The notes below the pieces were generated by a model, which saw only the letters and a program-made list of their open reading frames with translations, did not search any database and had not been told where the DNA came from. DNA of 46,172 bases from a virus, in the IMG/VR virus record IMGVR_UViG_3300035670_012355, positions 1 through 46,172 of that record, one strand, 5' to 3'. The first letter of the stretch is position 1. The number at the start of each line of letters is the position of its first letter. A program made the position numbers and the translations under genes. Below, one piece after another: positions 8,379 to 38,480 of the stretch.

Positions 8379-8379
8379 T

Positions 8380-11964: not shown

Positions 11965-11966
11965 AA

Positions 11967-17363: not shown

Positions 17364-17387
17364 AGCGATAATATAATAAATTAAAAA

Positions 17388-17864
17388 TTAAGAGTCACGT
17401 TTAGACAAAATTGGATTTGAAATAGGCCAATAAATTCCTATTTTAGGATCATTCCATTTTAATGTAAATTGATCTTGAACATCTGGATAAGCTCCTGGGT
17501 AAGCCCATTTATAAAAGAATGTTGCTTCATCACTTAAAACAAAATGACCATTAGCAAACATAGGTGGAATTAAAACTGATTTTCTATTTTTAGAAGATAA
17601 AACAATTGAATCCCACTTTAAATAATTCTCAGATTCAGGTCTATTATCAACTACTACTAAATAAACTTCACCAGCTAAACAAGAAATATATTTCCAAGAT
17701 TTAGAATCACCGTGTAGTCCTCTTAAAACATGTTTACGAGAAATAGAGACTTTATCATGATTAAAAACTAATTCGTGGTCGTCTTGTTTGAATAAAGTAT
17801 AAAGTTCACCTCTAAAATCTTCAAATGAGTCGGGTTGGTATATTTTTACTTCAGGGAATATCAT
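17388..17864 (-). CDS. RmlC-like dTDP-sugar 3,5-epimerase or isomerase
   Basis: A 158-residue cupin. HVLRGLHGD holds the catalytic His of RmlC, followed by AGEVYLVVVDNRPES and a strand with IPPMFANGHFVLSD, in the order of dTDP-4-dehydrorhamnose 3,5-epimerase. Related proteins epimerise or isomerise 4-keto-6-deoxy sugars. It would supply stereochemistry in the cassette. ATG at 17864 overlaps the GT10 stop by 4 bases. Confidence 0.8.
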   Translation of the reverse strand: MIFPEVKIYQPDSFEDFRGELYTLFKQDDHELVFNHDKVSISRKHVLRGLHGDSKSWKYISCLAGEVYLVVVDNRPESENYLKWDSIVLSSKNRKSVLIPPMFANGHFVLSDEATFFYKWAYPGAYPDVQDQFTLKWNDPKIGIYWPISNPILSKRDS

Positions 17865-18745
17865 AAATTATTAGCTGATTTGATTTGATCTAAAAATAAA
17901 CTTAACTTATTTCTAAAAGTATCTTCCATAGCTACCTGATAGTTGTATTCAATGTAGGGTAGTCTGCTATAATAGTCTTCGGGAGTTAAATTATTTACAA
18001 TTCTAACTAATTCTTCTTCACTATTAAATCTAATAACTCCCCTTTCATCATATCCTAATTCTTCTAAATTAGGACAACCCCAATAAATTGGAACAGTTTT
18101 AGTAGCAAACGATTGAGCTATTTTTTCAGTATACCAATTGTCTATTTTTACATTTTCAACTGCTACGTGAAACATAAAGTCTGTAAATAGTATTCTTTTT
18201 CCAAAATACTCTGGGACTTCTCCGTTTGGGACGTGGGTTAAATCTTTAGAATAATGAGTGTAACCGGGTCTGACTTGTTTAGAAACGTCAAAATCTTCTA
18301 AAACATATTTCCATTCTTTAGGGATTTTAATTTCTTTCTTTAATTTATAAAGTCGTTGTCTAAATTTATGACCTTCAGCCCAATTAGTAGTACCACATAA
18401 AAATGATACTTTAAATTCTTTTTCAGGAGTAATAAACTTATTATAATATTCCTTATCTTCTGTATGAACTAGCCCAAAGCTAAATTCTACAGCATTAGGT
18501 AGTTTTTTTAAAAGATGTTTATTATAAGTTAATACTGTATCAAATAAAAAATAATTTTGTTCAACCCAATCATGTACTCTAAATAATTCATTAGGTTCAT
18601 GAAGTAAATATATTTTAGTACGATTTAAACTTAGTTGTTCTAAGTTAGGAACATGGTCCATAAACATAGTAACAGGAAGATCCTTATACTTGTTTAAAAA
18701 GTATTCATAATGTGTTGGGTTAAAAAAATTATGAAGTATTACCAT
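17861..18745 (-). CDS. GT10 fucosyltransferase-like protein
   Basis: A 294-residue protein. The C-terminal half has the hallmark of alpha-1,3/4-fucosyltransferases: FHVAVENVKIDNWYTEKI then ATKTVPIYWGCPN, which contact GDP-fucose. This suggests a GDP-6-deoxyhexose donor, in keeping with the GDP-sugar SDR and ColD-like genes. The N-terminal half is the acceptor domain. No signal peptide or membrane anchor is seen, so it is cytoplasmic. Confidence 0.8.
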   Translation of the reverse strand: MVILHNFFNPTHYEYFLNKYKDLPVTMFMDHVPNLEQLSLNRTKIYLLHEPNELFRVHDWVEQNYFLFDTVLTYNKHLLKKLPNAVEFSFGLVHTEDKEYYNKFITPEKEFKVSFLCGTTNWAEGHKFRQRLYKLKKEIKIPKEWKYVLEDFDVSKQVRPGYTHYSKDLTHVPNGEVPEYFGKRILFTDFMFHVAVENVKIDNWYTEKIAQSFATKTVPIYWGCPNLEELGYDERGVIRFNSEEELVRIVNNLTPEDYYSRLPYIEYNYQVAMEDTFRNKLSLFLDQIKSANNL

Positions 18746-19137
18746 GAAATATCCCAGTCTTTAAACTCGGCTGCTAAACAATCAATTTTATAGTCTTTAC
18801 GACCACCTACAACCTCCTGAATTTTATTTTTAGCTGTATTACGAATACCATTTAAACCGTGTGTTAATTCGAGATTATTCCCGTCTTTAATACCCTTACG
18901 GTAATTAGATTCGTTGTGCCATATGTGAAGATTCATTTGCGATAAAACAACTATAGCACGGATAGTTTCAGCTGTAATCTCAGACTTATTTTCATCAATG
19001 TGGGCCTGAATATCGTGAACTATATCAGCAATTTCTTGGGCGTATTCTGCTTTATGTTCAGGGATGAATACTTCTTTAAGTTGAACAATTGATAAACGAT
19101 CAACTAGTTCACTTAGTGTTGGTAGATATTTCCTCAT
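18739..19137 (-). CDS. Conserved-looking hypothetical protein
   Basis: A 132-residue, mostly helical protein starting at the ATG at 19137, inside the end of the GT2 gene; a TTG 30 bases upstream is less likely. The segment LPTLSELVDRLSIVQLKE is distinctive and looks like a widespread phage family, but I cannot name its function. Middle residues include MNLHIWHNESNYR. Because it lies between two glycosyltransferases, a role in the sugar pathway is possible. Confidence 0.6.
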   Translation of the reverse strand: MRKYLPTLSELVDRLSIVQLKEVFIPEHKAEYAQEIADIVHDIQAHIDENKSEITAETIRAIVVLSQMNLHIWHNESNYRKGIKDGNNLELTHGLNGIRNTAKNKIQEVVGGRKDYKIDCLAAEFKDWDISW

Positions 19138-19750
19138 AATATTGGTTTTGTTTTTCTTGTCGTTCAATAGTTTTGTGATGCTCTAGAGCAAACTCTGATT
19201 CTAATGGTAATATAGCATGAGTCTTATAACCTTCCAAAATTTCATGTACCTTATTTTTCCATCTAATTTCTGAGGTGCGTTTGTAGATTCTCCACTGTAG
19301 ATCAGGCCAATTAACTCTTCCATGATTGTCTACAATCCATCCCCACTTTTGAATATGTTCCTGTGTAAGTCCTTCTACAGTATTTACTCTAGGTACTCGA
19401 AGCACTTCTACATCATTATTCTCAAGCAACATAGGAAGATATTGAATTAAATACCAATTAGGCATTTCGTCAGCATCAATTTGGAAGATATAATCCCCTA
19501 AACAAGCATCTGTAAGGGCATTTTTCATATTAGCAAAATGTCCATCGAAATGGTAATGTAACCATCTAAAAGGAGCAAATGTAGTTTGAGATAGACTTCT
19601 CAGATAATCATCTACTGATTTAGAACCATTATTAGAATCATAGAATACAATAATTTCATCTTCTTTTCTTTTATTTTCAATCAAAAAAGGAAGTAAACGT
19701 TGTATTTCTACTAATTCATTACAAACCGTTATAGCGTAACTAATTTTCAT
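19109..19750 (-). CDS. GT2 glycosyltransferase
   Basis: A 213-residue GT-A protein from the ATG at 19750, 1 base before the upstream gene's stop. Strand-helix ISYAITVCNELVEIQRLL and the DxD motif QIDADEMP (residues 92-94) are clear; WRIYKR and VHEILEGY are typical of the WaaE/KdtX-like GT2 branch that adds glucose to LPS core. Cytoplasmic, using a nucleotide sugar. Confidence 0.85.
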   Translation of the reverse strand: MKISYAITVCNELVEIQRLLPFLIENKRKEDEIIVFYDSNNGSKSVDDYLRSLSQTTFAPFRWLHYHFDGHFANMKNALTDACLGDYIFQIDADEMPNWYLIQYLPMLLENNDVEVLRVPRVNTVEGLTQEHIQKWGWIVDNHGRVNWPDLQWRIYKRTSEIRWKNKVHEILEGYKTHAILPLESEFALEHHKTIERQEKQNQYYEEISTNTK

Positions 19751-19751
19751 T

Positions 19752-20198
19752 TTATTCAGGTAATACTCCAATATACGTTAAAGCCTCCATAAACTCACGT
19801 TCTGGGAAGTGTTTTAGAGTAGTCATATCCATTTTATAATCGTACTCTTTACCTTTAGCTTTAAATTTAGCTTTTTCGTCTTCAGGCATTAGGGTTGCTT
19901 TTACAGCACCCCAAGCCCAATTTTGACCATTAGCACCATCAGCAAATACCATTCCTTTATCAGGGATGTTTATAGCTGAAGGGATCCAAATGAGACCATT
20001 TTCATCTTCACCCATTAGCTCTTTATATAGTTCAGGAAGTACTTCCATTTGTTGGGCTAAAAATTCACTATCGCGAGTCATTACGTTGTTAGCTTGGAAA
20101 CCACAACCATAACAAAAATGAAGTCTTACTGTATCGTTTACTTCTTGAACGTAACAGGCATCTGAGCCACAACGATCACAGGTAGTTAAATTATCCAT
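19752..20198 (-). CDS. Zinc-ribbon hypothetical protein
   Basis: A 148-residue protein. Cys-x2-Cys pairs at CDRCGS and CYGCGF (residues 7-33) form a zinc ribbon. The rest is mixed alpha/beta with Trp-rich IWIPSAINIPDKG and NWAWGAVK. Similar proteins seem to occur in marine phages, function unknown. It lies between two GT genes with 1-base overlap to the upstream one. Confidence 0.6.
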   Translation of the reverse strand: MDNLTTCDRCGSDACYVQEVNDTVRLHFCYGCGFQANNVMTRDSEFLAQQMEVLPELYKELMGEDENGLIWIPSAINIPDKGMVFADGANGQNWAWGAVKATLMPEDEKAKFKAKGKEYDYKMDMTTLKHFPEREFMEALTYIGVLPE

Positions 20199-21499
20199 TA
20201 TACTGGTTTTTTAGGTAATTCAATTTTTTTCAAATCAGGTAGTTTAAGTTCTATCTTTTTAGGCAAATCAGGAATGTATTGAGTAAACAATTCATCTATT
20301 TTGTTTTTCATAGCTTCCCAACTAAACTCTTTTTTGTTTTTGAATGCCTGACGTTTAGCTCCATCAGTATAATTTTTATAGTTTTCAAAAACATCTTTAA
20401 GATAATGCCCCACAGCTCCGTGATCAACTGAAAACCATTGACTTTCTTTTAGAATCATATTAGGCACAACAGCTGATTCATGAACCTCAGTTAATTGACC
20501 TGGGAGTAAAGAAGTAAATTCTGGGTTAAGAAAATCAATATGACCTGACCATCCTGAAGTAATAATTGGTTTTTTGCTTAAACTGAATTCTAATAGTGGA
20601 CGACCAAATCCTTCACCTTTAGTTAGGTTAATCATTGCTTTTACTTTAGGATGATTATATAACTGGTTCATTTCTAAATCAGTAAATTCACCATGTAAAA
20701 GATAAATGTTAGGCAAATTAGTTGAAGCAACTGTTTTTTTAATTAAATCTATTCTTTTTAGGATTTCATTTCGATCCATATAAGAGGCACCTGCACCACT
20801 TGTTTTTAAAATAAGAGCTGGTTTCTTAGATTTATTTTTAAAAGTTTCATAGAATGCTTTAATTAATAAACCTACATTCTTTCTATCTTGACCTAGATCT
20901 CCTTGAAGCCAGTGTCCCACAAACAAGTAAGCAAATGATTCAGGAATATCATTTAAAGTATTGTATAGATTATTTTTAGGAAGAATATCTAATACTTTAT
21001 AAATGTCAATATTAGCTCCTTCGAATAATACTTCAATTGGTTTTTCTACTTTAACCTGACCTAATGATTGACCATTGGTGTGTTTCTTTTCAAATATTGA
21101 ATTAAGGAAAGTAGTTTTTGAATGGTTTGAAGAAGTAAGAGTAACATCCATTCTATTAATTCCTTCTACCCAAGAACCGTCTACTAAAGTAGTTTCCATA
21201 CCTGCTGTACAACCAATATTAAATTTACCAACTGGTTGAAATTCATTTGGAACTGTAATTTGCATCCAAATATCAGGTTGTTCAGTTAACTGAGGAGCTT
21301 TATTTAAGTATTTAGTTAAAAACATCCATTCAGGATTATTTTTTATAAAACCCCAAGGTGTGTTTCCCCAACGTTGTGATATTAATTTAACATCATATTT
21401 ATCTAGTTCTATAATCGCTTTAATTAAATCTCTAGAACGGGCTCCATAACCGCTGTATGTGTCAAAAGGAGCGCTTATATAAAACGTATTTTTACTCAT
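20198..21499 (-). CDS. GT4-type glycosyltransferase
   Basis: A 433-residue GT-B fold protein. The N-terminal domain begins TFYISAPFDTYSGYGARSRD; the C-terminal domain has VGHWLQGDLGQDRKN and the donor-site motif LTKGEGFGRPLLEFSLSKKP, which matches the E-x7-E retaining GT4 motif. It ends in a Lys/Pro/Leu-rich tail of about 25 residues. It should act as a retaining glycosyltransferase in the cytoplasm. Confidence 0.85.
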   Translation of the reverse strand: MSKNTFYISAPFDTYSGYGARSRDLIKAIIELDKYDVKLISQRWGNTPWGFIKNNPEWMFLTKYLNKAPQLTEQPDIWMQITVPNEFQPVGKFNIGCTAGMETTLVDGSWVEGINRMDVTLTSSNHSKTTFLNSIFEKKHTNGQSLGQVKVEKPIEVLFEGANIDIYKVLDILPKNNLYNTLNDIPESFAYLFVGHWLQGDLGQDRKNVGLLIKAFYETFKNKSKKPALILKTSGAGASYMDRNEILKRIDLIKKTVASTNLPNIYLLHGEFTDLEMNQLYNHPKVKAMINLTKGEGFGRPLLEFSLSKKPIITSGWSGHIDFLNPEFTSLLPGQLTEVHESAVVPNMILKESQWFSVDHGAVGHYLKDVFENYKNYTDGAKRQAFKNKKEFSWEAMKNKIDELFTQYIPDLPKKIELKLPDLKKIELPKKPV

Positions 21500-21500
21500 A

Positions 21501-22931
21501 TTAGTAAATTAATTTATGATTTAGAACTGGTTTTTTATAGGTTGTTGTGTTGATAAGTTCAAAGTTTTCTCTGGGAGTCCAAGTTGAAAATAACTCATCT
21601 ATACCTTCAATAATTCTGTTTGCTTGATGTTCCTGAGTAAATCCAGCTTCATTAGATAAAGCCCATTCTTTACCTGCTTTACCTCTAGCTTTAAGTTCTT
21701 CTTTAGATAAACTGTAAGCTTCTTTAATACACTTAGCTGCATCTTCCCAACTACATCTATCATCAAAGATGTAAGGTGTTGGGACAGAACCTTGAACTGA
21801 GTGGTTATTTGGGAAAACTGGGAATGCCCATTTACCGTGTTTCTTATAGGTGCCTCTATGGTTTGAAGGAAAATCAGCATCAAAATCAATCCAAGTACCA
21901 TCTTCAAATTCAAAACGCATTTGATCTTGCATTCCACCTGTTACGTTAGCGATAATTGGGTTACCAACTAAAAGAGCTTCTGTAAGTGATAAACCCCAAC
22001 CTTCATTTGAAGTAAGTAGAATTTGAATATCTGCCATATTGTGAAGATAATTCATACGTTTACTGTCGTATCTACCCTCTGTAAAGATAATATTACAGTA
22101 TTCAGGACATAGTGTTTCAATTACAGCAAACAAATCAGTTCCATTCTCATCAATCGGTTGAGTATGAAGCATCAATACTACTTTTTCTCTTTGTTCAGGA
22201 GTTAATTCTTCAACAAATTGTCTAAATGCTAAGATTGTATCTGGAATTTGTTTACGACGGATGTTTCTAGAGTTAAAGAATACTACAAACTCATATTCTT
22301 TTCCTTTAAATAATTGTTTTTTAAAGTCTTGAAACTCTTTATCTTGTTCCTTATCAATAGGAAAATATACTTTAGGATTCAAACCATGAGGAACATACTT
22401 AATAATCTTATTTTTAGCTTTATCACCTAAAACAAGTTTATTGATGTTAACTGTTTGTTTTGAAATTCCGAATAATGCATCACATGCTTCATAAAAAGCT
22501 TGGTTATACATTGGTGCTGGGTAATCATCCCAAATGTTTAGATAAATAATAGGAATTTCCTTACGGATTTCATTTTCAATAGCAAATAACCAAGCCCAAT
22601 AACGTGGATCAGTAATTAAGAAAATAGCATCTGGTTTTTCAATGCTAATAATATTTCTTAAAAGAGTAGCATCACCATAACCATTTACTGGATAAAGAAT
22701 AACACTAGAATCATCTATACCTGCATTTATATTAGTATCAGCACTTAAATCTAAACGCTTACCAGCATCAGGATGTTTAATTGCTCCTCCAATATTAACC
22801 CAGTTAAAATGATGGGCTGTGCCAATCATTACTTCTTTTCCTACTGTTCCGATGCCTGAGGGCATTCTAATATCATCGCACATCAAAAGAATTTTTTTCC
22901 TTTGATCCTTAGGGATATAACCTTGTTTCAT
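21501..22931 (-). CDS. GT4-type glycosyltransferase
   Basis: A 476-residue GT-B protein and the first sugar gene in transcription order. It has a Rossmann-like start (ILLMCDDIRMPSGIGTVG), VPHGLNPKVYFP, and the donor motif LTSNEGWGLSLTEALLVGNP with both Glu residues. The two GT4 genes are separated by one base and probably act in sequence on one glycan. No membrane segment is seen. Confidence 0.85.
   Translation of the reverse strand: MKQGYIPKDQRKKILLMCDDIRMPSGIGTVGKEVMIGTAHHFNWVNIGGAIKHPDAGKRLDLSADTNINAGIDDSSVILYPVNGYGDATLLRNIISIEKPDAIFLITDPRYWAWLFAIENEIRKEIPIIYLNIWDDYPAPMYNQAFYEACDALFGISKQTVNINKLVLGDKAKNKIIKYVPHGLNPKVYFPIDKEQDKEFQDFKKQLFKGKEYEFVVFFNSRNIRRKQIPDTILAFRQFVEELTPEQREKVVLMLHTQPIDENGTDLFAVIETLCPEYCNIIFTEGRYDSKRMNYLHNMADIQILLTSNEGWGLSLTEALLVGNPIIANVTGGMQDQMRFEFEDGTWIDFDADFPSNHRGTYKKHGKWAFPVFPNNHSVQGSVPTPYIFDDRCSWEDAAKCIKEAYSLSKEELKARGKAGKEWALSNEAGFTQEHQANRIIEGIDELFSTWTPRENFELINTTTYKKPVLNHKLIY

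Positions 22932-26628: not shown

Positions 26629-26629
<1 letters not shown>
26369..26629 (-). CDS. Hypothetical protein
   Basis: An 86-residue protein with a Pro-rich, acidic C-terminal tail ending in KYDLYGDFE and a conserved-looking centre. It is fused into the transcription unit between groEL and the clamp loader ATPase, with TAATG coupling to groEL's stop. Not recognised. Confidence 0.55.
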
Positions 26630-28561
<1,932 letters not shown>

Positions 28562-28565
<4 letters not shown>

Positions 28566-28852
28566 ATTTTAATAACTTGACTTAAACGATTAACGATTTG
28601 ATTATAATTGTCGATATATTCTTGGATTGTATCATAGCTGATACTCATAGCCTCGTCTCGAGCAATTGCTTCAAGAGCACTGCCTAAACTAGTATAGTAT
28701 CCAAGTGTTTGTTGGTATTCTTTACCACTTTCTTCAGCGGTAATTCCTTTTTGCACAGCATAACAATAGTCATCCAATTGAATGTAATAGGGTTCAATTA
28801 GAGGATCTTTGATGTAACGTGTGTACTGCTTTGATTCCTTTGTTTTTCGCAT
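28562..28852 (-). CDS. Conserved-looking hypothetical protein
   Basis: A 96-residue protein, first gene of the chaperone operon. IKDPLIEPYYIQLDDYCYAV and TLGYYTSLGSALEAIA are reminiscent of small proteins seen in other Bacteroidota phages, but no function is known to me. It starts after a GTTATG context with a TATATTCA -7-like box about 18 bases upstream. Confidence 0.6.
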
Positions 28853-28869
28853 AACATTTTATTATAACG

Positions 28870-28901
28870 TGAATATACGACTAAAATTGCGCTAGGGCAC
28901 G
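28870..28901 (-). promoter_or_regulatory. Weak promoter and shared 10-mer before the chaperonin operon
   Basis: On the minus strand a -7-like TATATTCA is present 18 bases before the start, but the -33 position reads CGTGC rather than TTTG. The 10-mer at 28891-28900 recurs inverted at 29406-29415 upstream of hsp20. The pairing may mark a common control of the two chaperone units. Confidence 0.35.
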
Positions 28902-29415
28902 CTTTTAATCAAAAACTATTACTTAATTTTAAGGACTTTTGGTTTAGCTTCTTCAGCAAATGGTACAGAAATTTTTAGAAGACCATTCTTCATTTCTGCA
29001 GTTGCGTCTGCAAGCTTAAACTTAGAAGCTACTTTGTAACCTAAATTAAAAGAACGACGTGCAATACCTTTGTGGAGGTAAGTACAGTCGTTCACATCAC
29101 AACACTTGTCGTCTTCACTTTTATTGTAAGATATTTTAAGAACATCTCCTTCGATATTGATTCCAATATCGCTTTTTTCAAGACCAGTACATGCAACTTC
29201 AAAGTGCAAGCCGTCTTTGTTCTCGTAAATATCTACTGGGTGGGGAATTTTAGCCTCAATGGCTGGTTGGAAATTTAATTCCGATCTGAAGAAATCTTTA
29301 AACAACAGATCAAATGGTGAGAGGTGTCTCTCTGAAATAAATGTAGTCATACGCTAATAAATTTGTGCTGTCCTAAGATCAGCGGGTTAAACTTAACATA
29401 ACTTTGTGCCCTAGC
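28891..29415. repeat. 10-bp inverted repeat flanking hsp20
   Basis: GCTAGGGCAC at 28891-28900 and its reverse complement at 29406-29415 flank the hsp20 gene, one in the promoter region of the groES/groEL unit and one upstream of hsp20 itself. It may be a shared operator or the trace of a mobile unit; a 10-mer is short enough for chance in a 46-kb window. Confidence 0.35.
28919..29350 (-). CDS. Small heat-shock protein Hsp20
   Basis: A 143-residue alpha-crystallin protein. The domain runs from about residue 35 (IPHPVDIYENKDGLHFEVA) to GLLKISVP; the C-terminal anchoring motif is VLKIK (I/V-x-I). A Cys pair in DDKCCDVNDC is an addition to the usual domain. It should act as an ATP-independent holdase. 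It has its own upstream region containing the shared 10-mer and a possible TTG/TAAGTTTA promoter. Confidence 0.92.
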   Translation of the reverse strand: MTTFISERHLSPFDLLFKDFFRSELNFQPAIEAKIPHPVDIYENKDGLHFEVACTGLEKSDIGINIEGDVLKISYNKSEDDKCCDVNDCTYLHKGIARRSFNLGYKVASKFKLADATAEMKNGLLKISVPFAEEAKPKVLKIK

Positions 29416-29440: not shown

Positions 29441-30181
29441 TTATTGGTCTGCTTTTCTTACAATATAGTATGTACTTTTCCAGTTATCTCCTTCAAATAC
29501 AAACTTTAACAATCCTTGAATATTCAAACTCATGTGAGCTACATTCGCATCTTTATTATTTGCGAATACAACGCGAATCATTTCAGAGTTGAATGGGATA
29601 TTGAAATTGTATTGTTCGCCGGTTATAACCGTGTCAGGAACGATATACTCAATTTTATTTGTGTGGTTTGAATTATCTCCAAACACCATTGTAAGCACTT
29701 GCTCACCATCAAAGTTTTGAGTAATAGTAAAATTTACATTATCACTTTGTAGTGCATTTTTAGCTTTAATAACAGCTGAAATAGCATCTGATTCAAAGGT
29801 ACTTTCGATAATATAATCGTTTGGATCGTTTACTTTACCTGGTTCGTTAATCAATAATAGATCTGAAAGTGAATAGTTTAGTTTGTAACTAACGTCTTCA
29901 ATTACTAGTTTACTAAAAATTCTACCTGTTTTTTCTAGCTGTAGGTTTAGATCACCTGAGGTAATTCCCAATAGTTTATCTAATTGAGAAGTGTTGTAAA
30001 TAGCAATTTCGCAATCTTCTAAATCAAAACCCTTGTAAGTAACTTCCCCAATCATATCTTTTGTTGGGGCGTTAAATTTAATATTTAGCTGTTTTTCTTT
30101 AACAGTCCATTTTACAGCGTCAATCATTCCACTCAAATTATACTTTGAGATGATTGCTTGTAATTCTCCTTTATTTACCAT
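29441..30181 (-). CDS. Sliding clamp, T4 gp45-like
   Basis: A 246-residue protein. It begins with a strand-helix pattern and continues with SKLVIEDVSYKLNYSLSDLLLINEPGK and YNFNIPFNSEMIRVVFANNKD, typical of T4 gp45 clamps that trimerise to encircle DNA. It sits 2 bases downstream of the polymerase C-terminal half and is likely the processivity factor of that enzyme. Confidence 0.85.
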   Translation of the reverse strand: MVNKGELQAIISKYNLSGMIDAVKWTVKEKQLNIKFNAPTKDMIGEVTYKGFDLEDCEIAIYNTSQLDKLLGITSGDLNLQLEKTGRIFSKLVIEDVSYKLNYSLSDLLLINEPGKVNDPNDYIIESTFESDAISAVIKAKNALQSDNVNFTITQNFDGEQVLTMVFGDNSNHTNKIEYIVPDTVITGEQYNFNIPFNSEMIRVVFANNKDANVAHMSLNIQGLLKFVFEGDNWKSTYYIVRKADQ

Positions 30182-30183
30182 AT

Positions 30184-31113
30184 TTAAAAACTAAAAAACA
30201 GATTACGGTAGGGATTTAAATTAAGTGACCATCCTAAATCATGATAAAACCCTTCTAATTTACTTTCCAAAATCGATTCAAATGATTTGTGTTTGTCAGC
30301 ATAATCGTCTAATAATGTACGAATCTTTTCTGGCATATCAAAATCTAGGAATGCGAGTGCTTCTACTTTGTATGGGTTATCTTTTAGATAAATCCATTTT
30401 ACTTTATCACCCTGTGTAATTCTAGAGTGTTGTTTATCTAAACCCCAAAATGATAGTAAATCATTGTATTTGATAGCTGCTTTAACTGGGGCAGGTGCTT
30501 TAGGTTTGATTAATGAGAACATTTCTCCGGGTTTAGGGGCACGCTCAACATAATCGTTTAGAGTTTTTACTGAAGTTGGGTTACCTAGAATTGTAATATC
30601 AAGCTCTTTTGACATAATGTGCTCTCTAAACTCTAGAAGCAATTTATCAATTTCACTTTGTTTAGTACCCTTAAGAGCTAACTCTAGAATTTTATTAAAG
30701 AACTTTCCAAAAATAGGAGGAAAGTTAGCTTTCATAAACTCTAGACCTTTAATATCTAGCTCGTTTTTAACTACACCTTCTTTTTTAGTAATCCACTGAG
30801 CGTATCTTCGAGTTGCTCTAAAGTAAGCTGAACGAATGATACACTCGGTTTTCATCTCAAAACGGTGAACAGGAACGTTAAACACGTTTGTGGACATTTC
30901 CGAATAATAATCGGTAATTAAGTCTTGGTATTTGAGGGCGATTTCTTCAAGTTTGTTATCTCTTTCTTCTTCATCCATCTCATCAAAATTAGGGTAGAGA
31001 TGCCTAAGCAGAGGTTCAGCATTATAATAGTTAGAGTCGGTATCAACATAAGCGCAATAATTAGTATCGCCTTCTTTACAGATAAACCAAGGTGTACTTT
31101 CTAAATTAATCAT
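30184..31113 (-). CDS. DNA polymerase family B, C-terminal half (motif C onward)
   Basis: A 309-residue protein that begins just before polymerase motif C: YVDTDS with Asp24 and Asp26, one half of the catalytic palm. ATRRYAQW matches the KKRY-type motif that contacts DNA, followed by the thumb. The C terminus is YRNLFFSF, resembling the clamp-binding tail of T4 gp43. It lacks exonuclease, motif A and motif B, which are in the 31575-33296 gene. It must associate with that half to act. Its ATG overlaps the Smr gene stop as ATGA, so all four genes are coupled. Confidence 0.9.
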   Translation of the reverse strand: MINLESTPWFICKEGDTNYCAYVDTDSNYYNAEPLLRHLYPNFDEMDEEERDNKLEEIALKYQDLITDYYSEMSTNVFNVPVHRFEMKTECIIRSAYFRATRRYAQWITKKEGVVKNELDIKGLEFMKANFPPIFGKFFNKILELALKGTKQSEIDKLLLEFREHIMSKELDITILGNPTSVKTLNDYVERAPKPGEMFSLIKPKAPAPVKAAIKYNDLLSFWGLDKQHSRITQGDKVKWIYLKDNPYKVEALAFLDFDMPEKIRTLLDDYADKHKSFESILESKLEGFYHDLGWSLNLNPYRNLFFSF

Positions 31114-31334
31114 TCTACTACTACTATTTCTCCTAAATTGTGAGACGAAATATAATACTTAAAATCCCACTCATCAAGGAAATCCATTACTATTTCTTGC
31201 ATTTTTTGAGAATTACCTGTTATTATATTTGCTCCTTTACGATCAAAACCTTGCCAAAAGAAAAAGTCAATCAACTTATCTTCAACATCAGCATGTTTAA
31301 CCCCGTGCAAATCAAGCGTTGTCTTCCTCTTCAT
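31110..31334 (-). CDS. Smr-domain protein between polymerase halves
   Basis: A 74-residue protein. TTLDLHGVKHADVEDKL is the LDLHG motif of the Smr domain, followed by a strand-helix region (ANIITGNSQKMQEIV) as in Smr nicking or RNA-binding domains such as the MutS2 C terminus. Smr domains cut or bind nucleic acids. Here it sits between two parts of one polymerase, translationally coupled to both sides, so it may be part of the replisome. Confidence 0.8.
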   Translation of the reverse strand: MKRKTTLDLHGVKHADVEDKLIDFFFWQGFDRKGANIITGNSQKMQEIVMDFLDEWDFKYYISSHNLGEIVVVE

Positions 31335-31575
31335 TATGTATTACACCCTCAAGTTCACCTTTTTGGTTGTAAATCTGTTCGGGAACAGTAATATAAAATT
31401 TTTCTCCTTTAATGCTAAAACGTCCTCCTTGCTTAAGCATTTTCTTAAAAAAGAGTACTTCTTTATCTGACCACTTTTCTGATTTGAAAATAATAGTATC
31501 TTTGTCAAGTTTTTCACCTGCGCTATAAATTGATACTCCTGCTCTAATTGATTGTTTTGAAATTTTGTTTTCCAT
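31312..31575 (-). CDS. Hypothetical protein between polymerase halves
   Basis: An 87-residue protein, beta-rich and basic in the centre (KMLKQGGRFSIKGEKFYI), acidic at the end. ATG overlaps the stop of the polymerase N-terminal half as TAATG. Not recognised; a bridging or nucleic-acid binding role is only a possibility. Confidence 0.55.
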   Translation of the reverse strand: MENKISKQSIRAGVSIYSAGEKLDKDTIIFKSEKWSDKEVLFFKKMLKQGGRFSIKGEKFYITVPEQIYNQKGELEGVIHNEEEDNA

Positions 31576-33296
31576 TATAGTGTAAGTTCTCCTCTCATTA
31601 CTTTATTCATATGAGTGTTAGCAAAATAAGCTGATTCCTGAATAATTCGTTGACCAGACAAAGTAATACTTTCACTCAAAATTACGTTACCATACCTGAA
31701 TGAACCCAAAGCAGTAGCTCCGTAAAGTGAGTTCAACAAGATTTTCATTGTGTGTTGCATCAAGTGAAACTTTTCACCATCTGCTTTGTTGCCTGCTTTG
31801 TAAGCTTGCTTCATTTTATTTTTATATATAACTCGCTCCTCAAACCATTTTGCCAGAATCGTTTTTAGTACCGAATCAAAATCAGTTCGGTACATAACTC
31901 CATTAGCTGAAATTGCTAAATTAGAAGATTCTACCAAATTGATAATGTCTTTAACCTTCATTTGAGCTGTTCTACGCTTTGAATTTTGAACAGTAAACTC
32001 GTGATCCGGATTCATCTTTTTCAAATCATTTAATCCGTATCGACAGTTAAAAATCTCTTTATTCTCAACGACTACTTTTTCATCCGGCATCAAAATCCTA
32101 CCTACTAGCGTTTCTTTACCGATATTCAAAGACATGATAATTGAAGGATACAATGAAGTTAAATCCTCGTCAAACATGTAATTGAATAAACCCGCGTTAG
32201 GACAAAATAAGTAACCACCTGCGTAATTCTTTTTAGTAATTGGATTTCGATCGCGAGCCGGAGGTACAATACCTTGAGACAACAAGTAAGCCGAAATAGC
32301 ACCATCGTGAATCATACTATTCTTGTAAACGTCTGAATAGTTGATTTTACCTTTATGTGCTAGGTTTTTTGTTAAAGGTAAGTATTGGAATTTCTCGTCT
32401 AATGCCTTTAAAATCTCTACGTCTCGGAAGTTGTACGAGATAAACTTTTGTTTGTCTTCTCTAAACAAGCGGTCCAAACTACCCTCGTACTCGATTTTTT
32501 CCATACCTACGTACTTTTTACCTAAGGCATCAAGCTTATAGGATGGTTCGTCTTTAAAGCTAAACTTTTTGTGTAGCTTCATATAGTCTAAAGATTCGGT
32601 ACCCGCAATTTTAAGCCAACCATCTCTGTTCCATTCGGATTCATCCATTACAATTCCGATCGGAGACAGCATGTTTGCTACTTCTTTGTCAAATACATTA
32701 CAAAGGCGGTAATAGAGGTAAGGGATATCAAAGTAGTCACTGTTGTAGCCAACAAGTATATCCGGATTAATTTCGCGGAGGTGGGTTATAAAAGCCTCAA
32801 GTAAGGCTTTTTCTGTCGGAACCGGAATAATCTCCCTGTTACCTTCTTTATCTCTTTGTAGCTCGCTTTTTTTATCTAAGATAAGAATTTTCCACTCATC
32901 TGTTTGCTTATGCCACCAAGCTATAGAGGTGATAGGTTTAGGAGCGCTACGAATGTAATCTTCTGTAAGCGCACCTCCCATTTCACACTCTATATCAAAA
33001 AATACTTCTTGGTGGGTAGTAGAGGGCTCGTCATTTGTTCCGTACATATCAACTAGAAACCTTTGGTAGGGCCTCATATCGTGAAAGTGCAATTTGGGGT
33101 TATCTTTTTCCCATTTATTTACTTTACGGAGTGATTCTTGTCTTAATCCTCTAATGTTCTTGTCTGCATCATGATCATCGCATTCAACGTAAGCGTGGTA
33201 ATTCCAAGCCATAGTTTGATAACCGCCATCATCCCACAAGTGAATTCTATAATTGTTTTCCTTGAGGGGTTGTACAAAACAAGATTTATAACTCAT
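31575..33296 (-). CDS. DNA polymerase family B, N-terminal half (exonuclease to motif B)
   Basis: A 573-residue protein. The 3'-5' exonuclease is complete: DIE at residues 101-103, GYNSDYFD with Asp190, and YNFRD with Asp292. Polymerase motif A is DEDLTSLYPS with Asp378; motif B is KILLNSLYG (518-526). It ends 47 residues after motif B, before motif C, which is in the separate 30184-31113 gene. Catalytic aspartates of motifs A and C are thus on two polypeptides. It is the first of four coupled genes. Confidence 0.92.
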   Translation of the reverse strand: MSYKSCFVQPLKENNYRIHLWDDGGYQTMAWNYHAYVECDDHDADKNIRGLRQESLRKVNKWEKDNPKLHFHDMRPYQRFLVDMYGTNDEPSTTHQEVFFDIECEMGGALTEDYIRSAPKPITSIAWWHKQTDEWKILILDKKSELQRDKEGNREIIPVPTEKALLEAFITHLREINPDILVGYNSDYFDIPYLYYRLCNVFDKEVANMLSPIGIVMDESEWNRDGWLKIAGTESLDYMKLHKKFSFKDEPSYKLDALGKKYVGMEKIEYEGSLDRLFREDKQKFISYNFRDVEILKALDEKFQYLPLTKNLAHKGKINYSDVYKNSMIHDGAISAYLLSQGIVPPARDRNPITKKNYAGGYLFCPNAGLFNYMFDEDLTSLYPSIIMSLNIGKETLVGRILMPDEKVVVENKEIFNCRYGLNDLKKMNPDHEFTVQNSKRRTAQMKVKDIINLVESSNLAISANGVMYRTDFDSVLKTILAKWFEERVIYKNKMKQAYKAGNKADGEKFHLMQHTMKILLNSLYGATALGSFRYGNVILSESITLSGQRIIQESAYFANTHMNKVMRGELTL

Positions 33297-33913
33297 TACT
33301 TAAAAAATTGCTTCAGATCGGGTTTGAAGTAATTAATTGATTTCATCACTTTACGGTCTCGAGTACGATATACAACATACTTGTCACCAACCTGTTCATA
33401 GTGACAGCCTTCGCCTTGTTCTTGTGAACGTAGGTCAACAGTCTTTTGTGCCTCTTCTTGTGTAGAACAAGCTTTTGAAAGATTTGATGCCTGTACTTCC
33501 ATGTAAGCGGGCCAAATTTTATCCTTAAGACCATGAAGCATAGCACCGTTCCCAATGGAAACATAAGCAATGTCACACAACGCGTCCAAAACTTCAACGA
33601 TGTTTTCTGTTTCGCAAGCATGTTTATACTCCTCAAGTTCTTCCAGAATGAAGTTGTAGACAAAGTCCCATTCAGGTTTTGCTGGAATCGTTGGTACATA
33701 GTTGTTAGGTTTATTCATTAAGCTGTTGAACTCTTCAACCTCGCTGACGAATGGTACATATTGTGAATTAAACAAATTTGCAATTCTTCCAGCGGTAACT
33801 TCAGCCCAATCAAATTCAGGATTGCGAGTTGCTTCATCTCGATCATGGAATGAACGAAGCAATCCTAGGCTGTTGATTAGTTCAATAGTAATTAGTTCTT
33901 TAAATTGAGACAT
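33296..33913 (-). CDS. MazG-like nucleotide pyrophosphohydrolase
   Basis: A 205-residue protein. The centre has LEELEEYKHACETENIVEVLDALCDIAYVSIG followed by EVQASNLSK (each split by a few residues), the Glu/Asp metal-binding helices of the all-alpha NTP-PPase (MazG) family. Such phage enzymes clean the nucleotide pool or alter alarmone signals. A C-terminal extension ends in DLKQFFK, reminiscent of a clamp-binding motif. It overlaps the start region of folE's end by 14 bases. Confidence 0.8.
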   Translation of the reverse strand: MSQFKELITIELINSLGLLRSFHDRDEATRNPEFDWAEVTAGRIANLFNSQYVPFVSEVEEFNSLMNKPNNYVPTIPAKPEWDFVYNFILEELEEYKHACETENIVEVLDALCDIAYVSIGNGAMLHGLKDKIWPAYMEVQASNLSKACSTQEEAQKTVDLRSQEQGEGCHYEQVGDKYVVYRTRDRKVMKSINYFKPDLKQFFK

Positions 33914-34604
33914 GTCCGTTATTAATCTTTAGTGAATCAAAGAATTCTTTACGTGCTTGGTTATCATTATCCATAAACACACCTGATGCTTTGGTAGTTA
34001 CCATAGCTGCTCCTTGGTGTTTAACACCTCGACAAGATACACAAGAGTGAGTAGCAACAACAGTTACAATTACACCCAAATTATCTTCGCATACTTTATC
34101 TACGGCTTGGTGAATAGCGGCTGTAAGCTGTTCTTGAATAGCACCACGGCGACCAAAGTGCTCTACAATACGATTAAGCTTACTCAATCCAATAACTCGT
34201 CCATCTTTTCCTGCAACGTAGCCGATATGTACAACCCCATTGATGGTTTGATGATGGTGAGAACACATAGAAGTAAGAGGTATATTACGTTCAATGATAA
34301 TGCCATCATAGCCATCTGAGGGGAAAGAAGTGATTTCAGTAAACTTCTCATAACGTCCCTTCCAGAGATCATAGACATACGCTTTAGCCACTCGACGAGG
34401 TGTTTCCATTGAGTTTGGATCATTTTGCCAATCACATTTTAGTGCGGTAAGAAACTTACCGAAATGCTCGGTTGCCTCATCTACCATTTGTTGTTTTTGT
34501 TCGTCAGTAAGCGGGAAATCTCCTGCTACACCGTTTGCAAAACCGGCTTGAACACACTCGATATTGTCGTACTTTTTACGACGCTTGTTTTCAATGTTTT
34601 CCAT
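33900..34604 (-). CDS. folE: GTP cyclohydrolase I
   Basis: A 234-residue protein that makes dihydroneopterin triphosphate from GTP, the first step to 7-deazaguanines. SMCSHHHQTINGVVHIGYVAG and THSCVSCRGVKHQGA carry the Cys/His zinc ligands and active-site His. The ATG at 34604 is chosen because it follows a full promoter (34620-34650) and the GTTATATG leader; an upstream alternative start lies inside the HPRT gene. It begins the deazaguanine group with queE, queD and queC. Confidence 0.9.
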   Translation of the reverse strand: MENIENKRRKKYDNIECVQAGFANGVAGDFPLTDEQKQQMVDEATEHFGKFLTALKCDWQNDPNSMETPRRVAKAYVYDLWKGRYEKFTEITSFPSDGYDGIIIERNIPLTSMCSHHHQTINGVVHIGYVAGKDGRVIGLSKLNRIVEHFGRRGAIQEQLTAAIHQAVDKVCEDNLGVIVTVVATHSCVSCRGVKHQGAAMVTTKASGVFMDNDNQARKEFFDSLKINNGHVSI

Positions 34605-34619
34605 ATAACTTATTTTATT

Positions 34620-34650
34620 TAAATGTACGAAATAATCTTTACAGAGCAAA
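34620..34650 (-). promoter_or_regulatory. Promoter for folE
   Basis: Minus strand TTTGC-N18-TACATTTA, 15 bases before the ATG of folE. One base shorter spacing than the other promoters. It begins inside the end of the HPRT gene, so folE can be transcribed apart from the upstream genes. Confidence 0.6.
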
Positions 34651-35163
34651 GATTGATTTTAAGTTTCTTTTATAACCTCCAGTTGAATCCATTCCATAGC
34701 CAATCAACCATTCATCATCACATTCAAAAGCATGTCTAAATGTTGATACATGACTGTGTGGGTTAATAGGATTAAATTCGTTTTTAGCTCGTTTAACTAA
34801 GGTAACAATATTAATTGTCTTAGCCCCTTTTAAATTAAAGTACTTAGCTAAAAATTTCATTGTTTCACCTGAATCAAAGATATCATCTACAAGATAAACA
34901 TGTTTACCAGTAACTGATGTTTCAACATCTTTAGTTAGTTGAATACTACCTCGTTCTTTACCTGAATAGGATTTAACTCTGATAAAATCACATTCAACAT
35001 CAATTTCCATGTTACGAACTAGATCAGAATAAAACATAAAGGCTCCATTTAGTACTCCAACCATTACTACTGGGGTAGCATTGTTTTTATGTTCTCTAGA
35101 GATTTGTTGAGCAATAATTTTAGTTTTAATGTCTATATCTTTAGACGAATATAACTCTATCAT
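34639..35163 (-). CDS. Hypoxanthine/guanine phosphoribosyltransferase-like protein
   Basis: A 174-residue type I phosphoribosyltransferase. VYLVDDIFDSGETM is the PRPP-binding loop; VVMVGVLNGAFMFYSDLVR and IRVKSYSG are typical of hypoxanthine-guanine PRTases. It would salvage purines to IMP or GMP, possibly feeding GTP to FolE. A role on a deazaguanine base is a possibility. ATG overlaps the thioredoxin-like stop as ATGA. Confidence 0.85.
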   Translation of the reverse strand: MIELYSSKDIDIKTKIIAQQISREHKNNATPVVMVGVLNGAFMFYSDLVRNMEIDVECDFIRVKSYSGKERGSIQLTKDVETSVTGKHVYLVDDIFDSGETMKFLAKYFNLKGAKTINIVTLVKRAKNEFNPINPHSHVSTFRHAFECDDEWLIGYGMDSTGGYKRNLKSIFAL

Positions 35164-35435
35164 TTAAGTAAATTTTTAATCTGTTCAGTGCCAATAATTT
35201 TAGCTTTAAGTTGACTATTTTCAACTACAAGTAAAGTAGGATAATAAGTTATTTCAAAGGTTTTATTTAACTCATCATCTTTGTCTAACTCTACTAAAAT
35301 AATATTATTTTGTTCACTATATTCTTTAATTATACTTCTTATAGCATCACAGTGATTACATTTATCTTTAATAAAAGATATAAATAATTTAGGACTACCT
35401 ATAATAAGTTTTTTTAAATTATCGTCTTGATCCAT
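35160..35435 (-). CDS. Thioredoxin-fold protein with CNHC active site
   Basis: A 91-residue thioredoxin-like protein: SFIKDKCNHCDAI holds Cys-x2-Cys, and a cis-Pro site follows at YYPTLLVVEN. The pattern between is more like glutaredoxin or DsbA-type redoxins than classical Trx. It probably reduces a disulfide in a phage enzyme. It is one of two redox proteins in the deazaguanine region. Confidence 0.7.
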   Translation of the reverse strand: MDQDDNLKKLIIGSPKLFISFIKDKCNHCDAIRSIIKEYSEQNNIILVELDKDDELNKTFEITYYPTLLVVENSQLKAKIIGTEQIKNLLK

Positions 35436-35578
35436 TAAATTTTTTCTTTAGAACATTTTTTACAAATCCAAACAAAGTGAGGAATACCGAAGTTATTCCT
35501 CTCTACTTTGACTCCTGTTTTAAAAGTCATAGGACCTAAACAGTTATGACAAACTATTTTTTCAGACGCGCGTGCCAT
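35435..35578 (-). CDS. Small zinc-ribbon protein
   Basis: A 47-residue protein from the ATG at 35578 with CHNC and CKKC pairs (residues 10-13 and 39-42), forming a zinc ribbon. The start has the GTTATG context. Not otherwise recognised. Confidence 0.55.
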   Translation of the reverse strand: MARASEKIVCHNCLGPMTFKTGVKVERNNFGIPHFVWICKKCSKEKI

Positions 35579-35741
35579 AACGAAATTCAAATTTTTCGTT
35601 TTCTTTTTCTACTCCAATTCCATCTAAACTAATGTAACTTAATTTATAACCATAAGGGTGAATTGCTGAGATAATACCAGAAGGCTCAAGAACTTTAAGA
35701 GCCCATAACTGGTGTAGATTTTGAAGATATTGATGAGGCAT
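35562..35741 (-). CDS. Small hypothetical protein
   Basis: A 59-residue frame from the ATG at 35741 with a helical start and a beta-rich, charged end. It overlaps both neighbours by 1-17 bases, which is the main support. Not recognised. Confidence 0.5.
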   Translation of the reverse strand: MPHQYLQNLHQLWALKVLEPSGIISAIHPYGYKLSYISLDGIGVEKENEKFEFRYGTRV

Positions 35742-35920
35742 TATTTTATTTCTTTTACTTCGTAAATGTTTCCTGAGGTAGTATTAGCTTGAAAGATTTC
35801 AGCCAATTTAACAGCAGCATCTGCTGATTCAAACTCCATAGGAATACCCTCGCTATCATTTACAATGATAGTACGAGGGGTTCCTTGGATTTGTGTATGC
35901 TTAAGAATGATGTAAGCCAT
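35741..35920 (-). CDS. Small hypothetical protein
   Basis: A 59-residue alpha/beta protein from the ATG at 35920, TAATG-coupled to queE. IIVNDSEGIPMEFESADAAVKLAE suggests a small strand-helix fold similar to many phage accessory proteins. Not recognised. Confidence 0.5.
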   Translation of the reverse strand: MAYIILKHTQIQGTPRTIIVNDSEGIPMEFESADAAVKLAEIFQANTTSGNIYEVKEIK

Positions 35921-36702
35921 TATACTTCGCGTTTAGTATCAAAGGCAATAATATGTTCACGGCCTGTGAAATTATAGTAATTATCTGTACACCATTGAAT
36001 TACCATAGGATAAACACGAATTAGTTCTTCACGGTTATCACCTGGAGGCATAATCCAAATTTTATCTTTAGGTACTTCTAGCTCATCCATAAATGTTCTA
36101 ATTTCGTTCCATGTTTCAGGCATTTCAACAGGGTTGACAACTACCTTCATATGGTAATCAGAATGGTAAGCCATTGATTTTTTAATAGCATCTTTGTTTA
36201 AACGCAAGCTATTATGCTTATCAACCATTTTTTGGTCTACAACACCCCCAAGAGGTGTAGCAATCCCAAGTACAGGCACGCTGTTGCTAAATTTAGGGCT
36301 GAAAGATATAAGCCCAATAGGATGATCTGTTTGGAGGAAAGCAGACCCTTCTGTTTCGATCGTGATGATGATTTGCCTTTCATTTGCAAAGTGAGTTAGT
36401 TCGTTTACGAGTTTAGGATGCATAGTGGGAGAACCACCAGTTAGCATCATTTCCTTAATTTCAGGATGTTGATCGTAAATGTTAATAATATCCTGGAAGG
36501 TATATTTACCTTTCTCAGGGTGAATACTTGTGTACCAAGAGTCGCACCAGCCACCTTCACCAAAGTAGCAGCGGTGAGTGCAACCTGTAGTGCGAACTGC
36601 AACAGTAGGGCGACCTGCACGGCTACCTTCTGATTGCACACAAGTGTATAGTTCTACAATTGGTAAAACTTTATTGTAATCTTCAATTCTTCCTAGTGAC
36701 AT
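35920..36702 (-). CDS. queE: 7-carboxy-7-deazaguanine synthase (radical SAM)
   Basis: A 260-residue protein from the ATG at 36702, placed 2 bases after the queD stop and preceded by AAAGGATAA; an upstream start would overlap queD. LYTCVQSEGSRAGRPTVAVR and GGSPTMHP are QueE signatures. QueE turns 6-carboxytetrahydropterin into 7-carboxy-7-deazaguanine with SAM. The Fe-S motif is GCTHRCYFGEGGWCDS: Cys-x3-Cys-x7-Cys, five residues longer than the standard C-x3-C-x2-C. Confidence 0.9.
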   Translation of the reverse strand: MSLGRIEDYNKVLPIVELYTCVQSEGSRAGRPTVAVRTTGCTHRCYFGEGGWCDSWYTSIHPEKGKYTFQDIINIYDQHPEIKEMMLTGGSPTMHPKLVNELTHFANERQIIITIETEGSAFLQTDHPIGLISFSPKFSNSVPVLGIATPLGGVVDQKMVDKHNSLRLNKDAIKKSMAYHSDYHMKVVVNPVEMPETWNEIRTFMDELEVPKDKIWIMPPGDNREELIRVYPMVIQWCTDNYYNFTGREHIIAFDTKREV

Positions 36703-36703
36703 A

Positions 36704-37168
36704 TTATCCTTTATAAAATGCTGTATTTTTTTCATGTTCACGGAACTCAACTTGAACAACCTTTACGCGACCTTCTGTTTCAGTTTGAATAAAATCGTTT
36801 AGCTTGTTATAGAAATATTCTGCAAATCGTTCTGCTCCTGTGGCTGGGATTACTCGAAGTTGGATTACTCCAAATTTCTCCATTGCTTTAAATCCTTCTA
36901 GTTCAGGATCGTCTTCAGCTACAATAGTAGTGTGATCAAGCATGTAATCCATCCATGCTTTAGGATTCATACCATCAATAGTTCCTTTAGCACGCTTCAT
37001 ACCTCCAAAATCCCATACCCAGTTACGCTCATCAAGATCACCTTCAAACCATACTCTTAGGCTTACTCCATAGCCGTGAAGAAATCTGCAGTGAGTTCCT
37101 TCGGCTTTCCACTGACGGAAGACTGTTGAGTAACCGTCAAATATTTTTGTTGATCTAAAGCTTCCCAT
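36704..37168 (-). CDS. queD: 6-carboxytetrahydropterin synthase (QueD-like)
   Basis: A 154-residue T-fold protein from the ATG at 37168. FRQWKAEGTHCRFLHGYG matches the active-site stretch of QueD/PTPS (Cys and LHG are kept), and ERNWVWDFGGMK fits the WVxDFxxLK segment. It makes 6-carboxytetrahydropterin from the FolE product. Of the usual three zinc His, the second of LHGHxH is Tyr here and the first lies in an altered FRQW context, so the metal site differs. It overlaps the thioredoxin gene by 14 bases. Confidence 0.85.
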   Translation of the reverse strand: MGSFRSTKIFDGYSTVFRQWKAEGTHCRFLHGYGVSLRVWFEGDLDERNWVWDFGGMKRAKGTIDGMNPKAWMDYMLDHTTIVAEDDPELEGFKAMEKFGVIQLRVIPATGAERFAEYFYNKLNDFIQTETEGRVKVVQVEFREHEKNTAFYKG

Positions 37169-37409
37169 TGTAAAAATCAATTACTTGTTGCATTGAACGA
37201 GCTCCTGTAAAGCGAGCTTTTTCTTGTTCATTTTCTACTAAAATTACTGTAGGAACACTTTTAATTCCATAGCGAGTTGTAGCATCAGGAGTATAATCTA
37301 CATTAAGTTTTTTAATAGGCATACCTTGTTTAGCTAATTCATCCATCACAGGACCGAATTGTTTACAGGGACCACACCAGTCCGCTGAAAAATACCATAG
37401 TTGTTTCAT
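37155..37409 (-). CDS. Thioredoxin
   Basis: An 84-residue thioredoxin with the canonical WCGPC site at residues 11-15, the cis-Pro SVPTVILVEN and the C-terminal helix. Shorter than host Trx (about 105) but complete in motifs. It may reduce the phage's enzymes or host ribonucleotide reductase. It is in the deazaguanine block and overlaps queD. Confidence 0.88.
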   Translation of the reverse strand: MKQLWYFSADWCGPCKQFGPVMDELAKQGMPIKKLNVDYTPDATTRYGIKSVPTVILVENEQEKARFTGARSMQQVIDFYNGKL

Positions 37410-37636
37410 TTACGTATAAATTGATAATTAATAAAAAGAAACATTAGAGCAGCCGCTGTTAACCAGCGACCCTCTCCTGCTTCAAAAAGTGAGCTAAACA
37501 AAAAGCTCCAATGTCCATATTTCAAAAACCAAGTTTCAAATTTTTTCATTTTACTATTTTTTTGTTTTTGTTCTTTTTCCCAACGTTCTTTATTTTTACC
37601 GTTGAAAATATCTCTATAGAGATTACTTCGATCCAT
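37406..37636 (-). CDS. Small membrane-associated protein
   Basis: A 76-residue protein with a charged Lys/Glu-rich first third, a Trp-rich middle and a hydrophobic C-terminal segment (about 58-72). ATGA overlaps with the thioredoxin start. Not recognised. Confidence 0.5.
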   Translation of the reverse strand: MDRSNLYRDIFNGKNKERWEKEQKQKNSKMKKFETWFLKYGHWSFLFSSLFEAGEGRWLTAAALMFLFINYQFIRK

Positions 37637-38480
37637 GACTTTCTAGTACTTTTGATACTTCTGCTACTACGTGTTCCCAAGTTACAGGACCGGTCTCGTC
37701 TGCATATTCTACTGGGTCAGGACGACCTAGTTTAAGGAATGCCTCAACTCGTTCTACTGAAGAAGCTGATTTGTAATCTGAGTACCATTTGTAAGCATTA
37801 GTCTCTGGACGGTTATACCATTTGATTGGTTTATAAGATGTATTTGTACGTGAATATACTTCATTAAAATCAAGTCCTAATTCATCACACAATACTTCTC
37901 CATCTTGTAAAATGGTGAATTTATCACCTTTAAGATAGGGTGTAAAATAACTTACATTTTCAGCACCCCAATTACCTATTCTAAAAGCATAATCGTCTGC
38001 GTCACGGAATTCTTGACGACAATCAGGATAGATTGCATGGTCACCTGCGTGAATACCCATTGCAATGTCACACATTTCACCTGTTTTATCAGCGATTGAA
38101 AGTGCAACTGCTTGAGTAATTGAAGCAAAGATTTTGTTACGATTAGGAACAACTGTTGCTTTCATATTTTCTTCAGCATAGTGTCCTTCAGGTACTTCAT
38201 CTCCACCTGTTACAAGTGCTGAGTTAAGTAGATCAACCAAACCGTCAAGTTTGATAACTCGGTAGTTAATCATTGAATAAGCATCTTTACTTTTACCTTC
38301 TACTAATCTTTGAAAATTTAAAAGGTTTACTAAAGATTGAGCACGGTCAAGTTCAACTCGGTGTTTTTGACCATAATCAAATGAAAGTGCTGTTACTGTA
38401 TCGTACTCTTTCAAGCAACGAAGCAACAATGTTGAGGAATCCATTCCTCCAGATAACGAAACTACAACGTGTTTTGCCAT
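37623..38480 (-). CDS. queC: 7-cyano-7-deazaguanine synthase (QueC) without zinc cysteines
   Basis: A 285-residue PP-loop enzyme: SGGMDSS (10-16), ALSFDYGQKHRVEL and VVPNRNKIF are QueC signatures. It makes preQ0 from carboxy-deazaguanine and ammonia with ATP. The four Cys that bind zinc near the C terminus of QueC are absent: the aligned region reads NTSYKP and YKSASSVERVEAF. It may need no zinc. A start codon is preceded by an A/T-rich leader. Confidence 0.88.
   Translation of the reverse strand: MAKHVVVSLSGGMDSSTLLLRCLKEYDTVTALSFDYGQKHRVELDRAQSLVNLLNFQRLVEGKSKDAYSMINYRVIKLDGLVDLLNSALVTGGDEVPEGHYAEENMKATVVPNRNKIFASITQAVALSIADKTGEMCDIAMGIHAGDHAIYPDCRQEFRDADDYAFRIGNWGAENVSYFTPYLKGDKFTILQDGEVLCDELGLDFNEVYSRTNTSYKPIKWYNRPETNAYKWYSDYKSASSVERVEAFLKLGRPDPVEYADETGPVTWEHVVAEVSKVLESHGSK

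What the first reader, a model, noticed from the sequence alone, without database searches (positions are those of the whole stretch)
31110..33296. Family B DNA polymerase split between motif B and motif C
The N-terminal gene carries the exonuclease, motif A (Asp378) and motif B; the C-terminal gene begins 23 residues before motif C (Asp24, Asp26). The catalytic aspartates of one active site thus lie on two polypeptides, separated by two intact genes, with all four genes joined by TAATG/ATGA or short overlaps. Split T4-like polymerases are known in some phages, but a cut at this place with an Smr-domain gene between the halves is, to my knowledge, not a standard arrangement. It implies a polymerase assembled in trans, with balanced translation.
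Basis: partly seen in the sequence, partly recalled or inferred. Interest (0 to 1): 0.82.

Follow-up and report, generated by a model that had tools for sequence, protein, structure and literature searches.

The report
Phage DNA polymerase made in two
A family of uncultured, mostly marine phages makes its only detectable DNA-copying enzyme as two separate proteins, cut through the catalytic centre at a place not used by the known split phage polymerases, and other genes have repeatedly settled in the gap.

Summary
A T4-type family B DNA polymerase is encoded as an N half (31575-33296, 573 aa: exonuclease, motif A, motif B) and a C half (30184-31113, 309 aa: motif C, thumb), with two intact genes between. 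In fold comparison the N half covers RB69 gp43 3-615 and the C half about 606-900, so nothing is missing. It is not an assembly error: 59 non-identical N/C pairs have the same break, with spacing from a 4-nt overlap to 4,210 nt and zero to six genes between. Both halves are under strong purifying selection (dN/dS 0.03-0.07), and relatives of 58-170 kb hold no other polymerase detected. The best reading is a heterodimeric replicative polymerase with one active site built from two chains. Split T4-type PolB is known (Aeromonas phage 43A/43B), but that break lies before motif B; here it lies between B and C. Relatives carry a GIY-YIG gene at the break (L170) or a replaced C-half start beside an HNH-like ORF (L012), which suggests homing endonucleases. 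A continuous sister group sits inside the split forms in the tree, so re-fusion is favoured but not secure. The Smr gene is a passenger. Assembly in trans is inferred, not shown.

The parts
31575..33296 (-). polB N half, 573 aa: N-terminal and 3'-5' exonuclease domains, palm part 1 with motif A (D378), fingers and motif B (K518-NSLYG), ends after the following palm helix (H538-567)
   Evidence: Pfam DNA_pol_B_exo1 1.3e-18 and DNA_pol_B 3.7e-19; phrog_262 1.5e-111; model pLDDT 89; aligns to RB69 gp43 3-615, Z 36-41
30184..31113 (-). polB C half, 309 aa: motif C (D24, D26), rest of palm, thumb, C-terminal tail
   Evidence: phrog_262 positions 565-842, 1e-42; model aligns to RB69 gp43 606-900, Z 17; start Met invariant in the family alignment
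31312..31575 (-). 87-aa gene (family F0), function unknown; found between the halves in at least 48 of 59 pairs, elsewhere in some relatives
31110..31334 (-). 74-aa Smr-like gene (family F1), passenger in 27 of 59 pairs
31110..31113 (-). ATGA overlap: stop of Smr-like gene / start of polB C half
31575..31575 (-). TAATG junction: last base of polB N-half stop is first base of the 87-aa gene's start

Best explanation
A T4-type family B replicative polymerase encoded by two genes. The N half (exonuclease, motif A, fingers with motif B) and the C half (motif C hairpin, rest of the palm, thumb, C-terminal tail) are translated separately from one operon and associate non-covalently, so that the two catalytic aspartate clusters meet in a shared palm. 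The break lies in the loop between the last palm helix of the N half and the motif C hairpin. Shown here: gene structure, residue content, completeness of the two halves together, conservation of the break, purifying selection, and absence of another detectable polymerase in long relatives. Inferred: association and activity, the role of homing endonucleases in creating or occupying the break, and re-fusion in one sister group.
For: Complete set of motifs over two chains with no part missing. Same break, with conserved N tail (MNKVxxGExxL) and C head (M[IK]xLExTPWFIC), in 59 non-identical pairs. dN/dS 0.03-0.07 in both halves. N and C half distances correlate (0.80 among split forms). Contigs of 58-170 kb have only this PolB and no PolA or DnaE. 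In isolation the N-half model leaves the region before motif A at pLDDT about 52 and draws motif A as a helix, and the C-half model leaves its palm part (residues 1-130) largely uncertain, with long stretches below 50, while most of the thumb is above 85, as expected if each completes the other's palm. Precedent: split gp43A and gp43B of Aeromonas phage 25 co-purify and have polymerase activity, and the split NrdA of phage Aeh1 is fully functional (PMC2988022).
Against: No biochemistry, and no two-chain model could be run. All long relatives are contigs of unknown completeness, so another polymerase could lie outside them. Low confidence of isolated halves in AlphaFold is only weak evidence for complementarity.
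Confidence: 0.88

Rival explanations
1. The two halves are joined after transcription or translation (group I/II intron, split intein, or programmed frameshift or bypass), so the working enzyme is one chain.
For: Introns and inteins are common in polB genes; the huge-phage relative LR756508 has inteins at motif B and motif C; Nanoarchaeum PolB could be trans-spliced by an intein (PMC4104785).
Against: No Rfam intron family at gathering threshold in the window or seven relatives; no intein domain in either half and only about 14 + 23 residues of tail and head between palm helix and motif C; inserts are intact, changing genes that mostly start on the N-half stop.
Confidence: 0.05
2. The split gene is a decaying or accessory polymerase and a different enzyme replicates the genome.
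For: The window and its relatives are fragments.
Against: Strong purifying selection on both halves, invariant catalytic residues, no PolB, PolA or DnaE elsewhere in ten contigs up to 170 kb, and a clamp loader in the same gene cluster.
Confidence: 0.04
3. Evolutionary rival (compatible with the two-chain mechanism): the continuous sister group keeps the ancestral state and the break arose two or three times independently at the same loop, rather than once followed by re-fusion.
For: A lengthened loop could predispose to repeated breakage; LR756508 appears to be an independent break at the same loop, because its nearest relative Mel-JY01 is continuous; re-fusion rests on AU p of only 0.022 and 0.046.
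Against: Trees nest the continuous group inside split lineages with SH-aLRT 90-97; its loop is 35 residues, like tail plus head in split forms (median 37) and unlike the 19 of continuous outgroups and RB69; the same 87-aa family sits in the break in both split branches.
Confidence: 0.35

Closest known systems
gp43A/gp43B split polymerase of Aeromonas T4-like phages (25, 44RR, 65)
   Same: T4-type PolB in two adjacent genes; 43A and 43B of phage 25 co-purify and are active; homing endonuclease or untranslated insert at the break (PMC2988022)
   Different: In phage 65 the break lies in the fingers before motif B, so B and C share a chain; here it lies between B and C, with varied cargo genes, in a distant lineage (28% identity)
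Split NrdA of phage Aeh1 (mobE genes-in-pieces)
   Same: Essential replication gene split by an insertion, two chains working together (PMC2988022)
   Different: Other enzyme; in the window the endonuclease is absent, and only relatives L170 (GIY-YIG) and perhaps L012 (HNH-like) have one
Split PolB3 of Methanobacteriales (M. thermautotrophicus PolB)
   Same: Family B polymerase encoded by two polypeptides
   Different: Archaeal, attributed to failed intein excision (PMC4104785, PMC7776575); exact break not compared here
Polymerase of uncultured huge phage LR756508
   Same: Break in the same loop before motif C, several genes between
   Different: Carries inteins at motif B and motif C; about 35% identity; apparently an independent break

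Membership tests
T4 gp43-type family B DNA polymerase | Exonuclease domain plus polymerase motifs A, B and C | tested here: met
   All present, catalytic residues invariant, over two chains
T4 gp43-type family B DNA polymerase | Fold collinear with RB69 gp43 along its length | tested here: met
   N half to RB69 3-615 (Z up to 41), C half to 606-900 (Z 17)
T4 gp43-type family B DNA polymerase | Single continuous chain | tested here: not met
   Two ORFs 461 nt apart
Aeromonas-type 43A/43B split polymerase | Break before motif B | tested here: not met
   Motif B is on the N half here; phage 65 has it on 43B
Aeromonas-type 43A/43B split polymerase | Halves co-purify and are active | not testable with these tools
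   Known for phage 25 (PMC2988022)
Split-intein (trans-spliced) polymerase | Intein halves at the break | tested here: not met
   No intein domain in either half; tails too short
Intron-interrupted polymerase | Group I or II intron in the gap | tested here: not met
   No Rfam match at gathering score; undescribed introns not excluded
Homing-endonuclease genes-in-pieces | Homing endonuclease gene in the break | tested here: not met
   None in the window; GIY-YIG T5orf172 in L170 (4.7e-14); HNH-like ORF in L012 by eye, no Pfam hit
Smr domain (middle gene) | PF01713 match | tested here: inconclusive
   9 of 12 family members match, best 2.8e-5; window copy itself does not

The most novel reading that the evidence does not exclude
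A replicative polymerase was split once between motifs B and C by a homing endonuclease, has run as a heterodimer across a whole phage clade while the gap became an entry point for cargo genes, and was stitched back into one chain in one branch, leaving a roughly 16-residue scar in the loop. That would be a documented fission and re-fusion of a catalytic core.
Probability: 0.4. Interest if true: 0.75.

Novelty: new variant of a known kind. Interest (0 to 1): 0.58.

Why it matters
It shows that the catalytic aspartates of a replicative polymerase can sit on different chains over a whole phage lineage, not only in one isolate. It gives a natural split point (RB69 about 612-615) for engineered two-part polymerases, and a set of split, empty-gap, filled-gap and continuous relatives for testing how genes break, fill and fuse.

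Tried and rejected
Assembly error or frameshift: rejected, same break in many independent contigs, including MAG contigs. Intron: no Rfam hit. Intein: none. Second polymerase in relatives: none. Relatives of the LR756508 C half in viral contigs: none found. F0 function: no consistent Pfam family over 13 members. Smr profile against PDB: nothing. Single-sequence PDB search with the C half gave only chance hits. The ATGA-overlap forms are not the ancestral state: they are nested inside the clade. Position of the break in Methanothermobacter PolB could not be settled from held papers. Papers searched for this particular split: none found in the held library.

Full report
Observation. The minus strand carries, in order of transcription, a MazG-like gene (33296-33913), the polB N half (31575-33296), an 87-aa gene (31312-31575), a 74-aa Smr-like gene (31110-31334), the polB C half (30184-31113) and a 246-aa gene (29441-30181). 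The junctions are TAATG, a 23-nt overlap and ATGA. Exonuclease, motif A (D378) and motif B (K518-G526) are on the N half and motif C (D24, D26) is on the C half; the catalytic residues are invariant in alignments of about 50 relatives. The T4-type profile phrog_262 is covered by the two halves with no gap between them (41-567 and 565-842 of 856).

Structure. The N-half model (50 sequences, mean pLDDT 89) ends with a long palm helix (538-567) and aligns to RB69 gp43 3-615 at Z up to 41. The C-half model has a confident thumb and a poorly predicted palm portion; it aligns to RB69 606 or 611-900 at Z 17. The break thus lies in the loop between palm helix and motif C hairpin. Alone, the N-half model is uncertain just before motif A and draws motif A as a helix, and the C half leaves residues 1-130 largely uncertain. 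This fits a palm completed only by both chains, but it is inference: no two-chain prediction was possible.

Relatives. IMG/VR searches with each half gave, with the window, 59 non-identical N/C pairs with both halves readable, all split in the same place. Spacing runs from -4 nt (L098, L099, L101, L104: ATGA, no insert) to 4,210 nt (L110). The 87-aa family (F0) lies in the gap in at least 48 of 59 pairs and the Smr family (F1) in at least 27; other fillers are a DUF2452 protein, a DAHP/Kdo8P-synthase-like protein, a transaldolase-like protein, a PLP-dependent enzyme and a DegT aminotransferase. So the gap is a tolerated entry point and the Smr gene is a passenger. L100 and L102 have junctions like those of L098 but with one gene inserted at the ATGA site.

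Selection and uniqueness. dN/dS against four close relatives is 0.036-0.074 for the N half and 0.032-0.057 for the C half. Ten contigs, the window and nine relatives of up to 170 kb, have no further PolB and no PolA or DnaE match; these contigs may be incomplete.

Origin. Continuous relatives exist: L030, L031, L136-L144, L176, L199 (L030 is 57% identical to the window over its length), the more distant L153, L167, L168, L173 (L153: 43%), and Microcystis phage Mel-JY01 (35%). Trees put the L030 group inside split lineages (L170 and L177-L182 on one side, the window clade on the other). Holding all split forms together is rejected weakly (AU p 0.022; 0.046 without the long rows), and the group was named after an earlier tree had been seen. 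The L030-group loop from the helix Asn to motif C is 35 residues, like tail plus head in split forms (median 37), while continuous outgroups have 19. One fission followed by re-fusion is therefore favoured; repeated fission of an expanded loop is not excluded.

Homing endonucleases. In L170 the gap holds a GIY-YIG T5orf172 gene (4.7e-14). In L012 an HNH-like ORF (by eye; no Pfam hit) stands just before the C half, and the first 30 residues of the C half are only 50% identical to L013, whose N half is nearly identical, as after homing with co-conversion. L197 against L103 shows a similar replaced C-half start. The window itself has no endonuclease.

Known cases. In Aeromonas phage 65 the 43A/43B break is before motif B. 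For phage 25, 43A and 43B co-purify and are active, and Aeh1 NrdA split by mobE is fully functional (PMC2988022). Methanobacteriales have a split PolB3, and Nanoarchaeum a PolB in two parts that could be joined by a split intein (PMC4104785). The huge phage LR756508 has a break in the same loop plus two inteins, and is nearest to continuous Mel-JY01 (45% identity), so its break is probably independent. The present case is a new variant: known principle, new cut between B and C, lineage-wide, with variable cargo.

Mechanism. Most likely the halves are made from one transcript and bind through the palm. Because filler genes vary so much, strict coupling through the two middle genes is not needed.

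Noticed in passing
L117 9998-17922 (LR756508.1): Huge-phage polB broken in the same loop before motif C, with an intein at motif B in the N ORF and one at motif C in the C ORF, and four genes between.
   Followed up: partly
window 29441-30181: 246-aa gene directly after the polB C half; a similar-sized gene follows polB in L139, L170, L117 and Mel-JY01. Candidate sliding clamp by position only (Pfam DNA_pol3_beta_3 at E 0.15).
   Followed up: no
L195-L199: Relatives of the polymerase lie in MAG contigs labelled Flavobacteriaceae (L197, L198), Pelagibacter (L196, L199) and an unnamed bacterium (L195); host uncertain.
   Followed up: no
L196 3125-3503, L198 4785-4805: Two further split polymerases with nothing or only a few bases between the halves, in MAG contigs.
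   Followed up: partly
L009, L079, L113: N half runs on for tens of extra residues beyond the usual end before its stop.
   Followed up: no
L033 3352-4381 and following: N half interrupted by a frameshift (rest in another ORF); sequencing error or decay.
   Followed up: no
window 26629-29350: GroEL-like, GroES-like and small heat-shock-like genes together near the replication genes (by sequence inspection).
   Followed up: no
window 33900-38480: GTP cyclohydrolase-like and QueE-like (by inspection) and QueC (Pfam) genes, suggesting 7-deazaguanine synthesis.
   Followed up: no
window 7623-22931: Long cluster with sugar epimerase, aminotransferase, transketolase-like and glycosyltransferase genes.
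   Followed up: no
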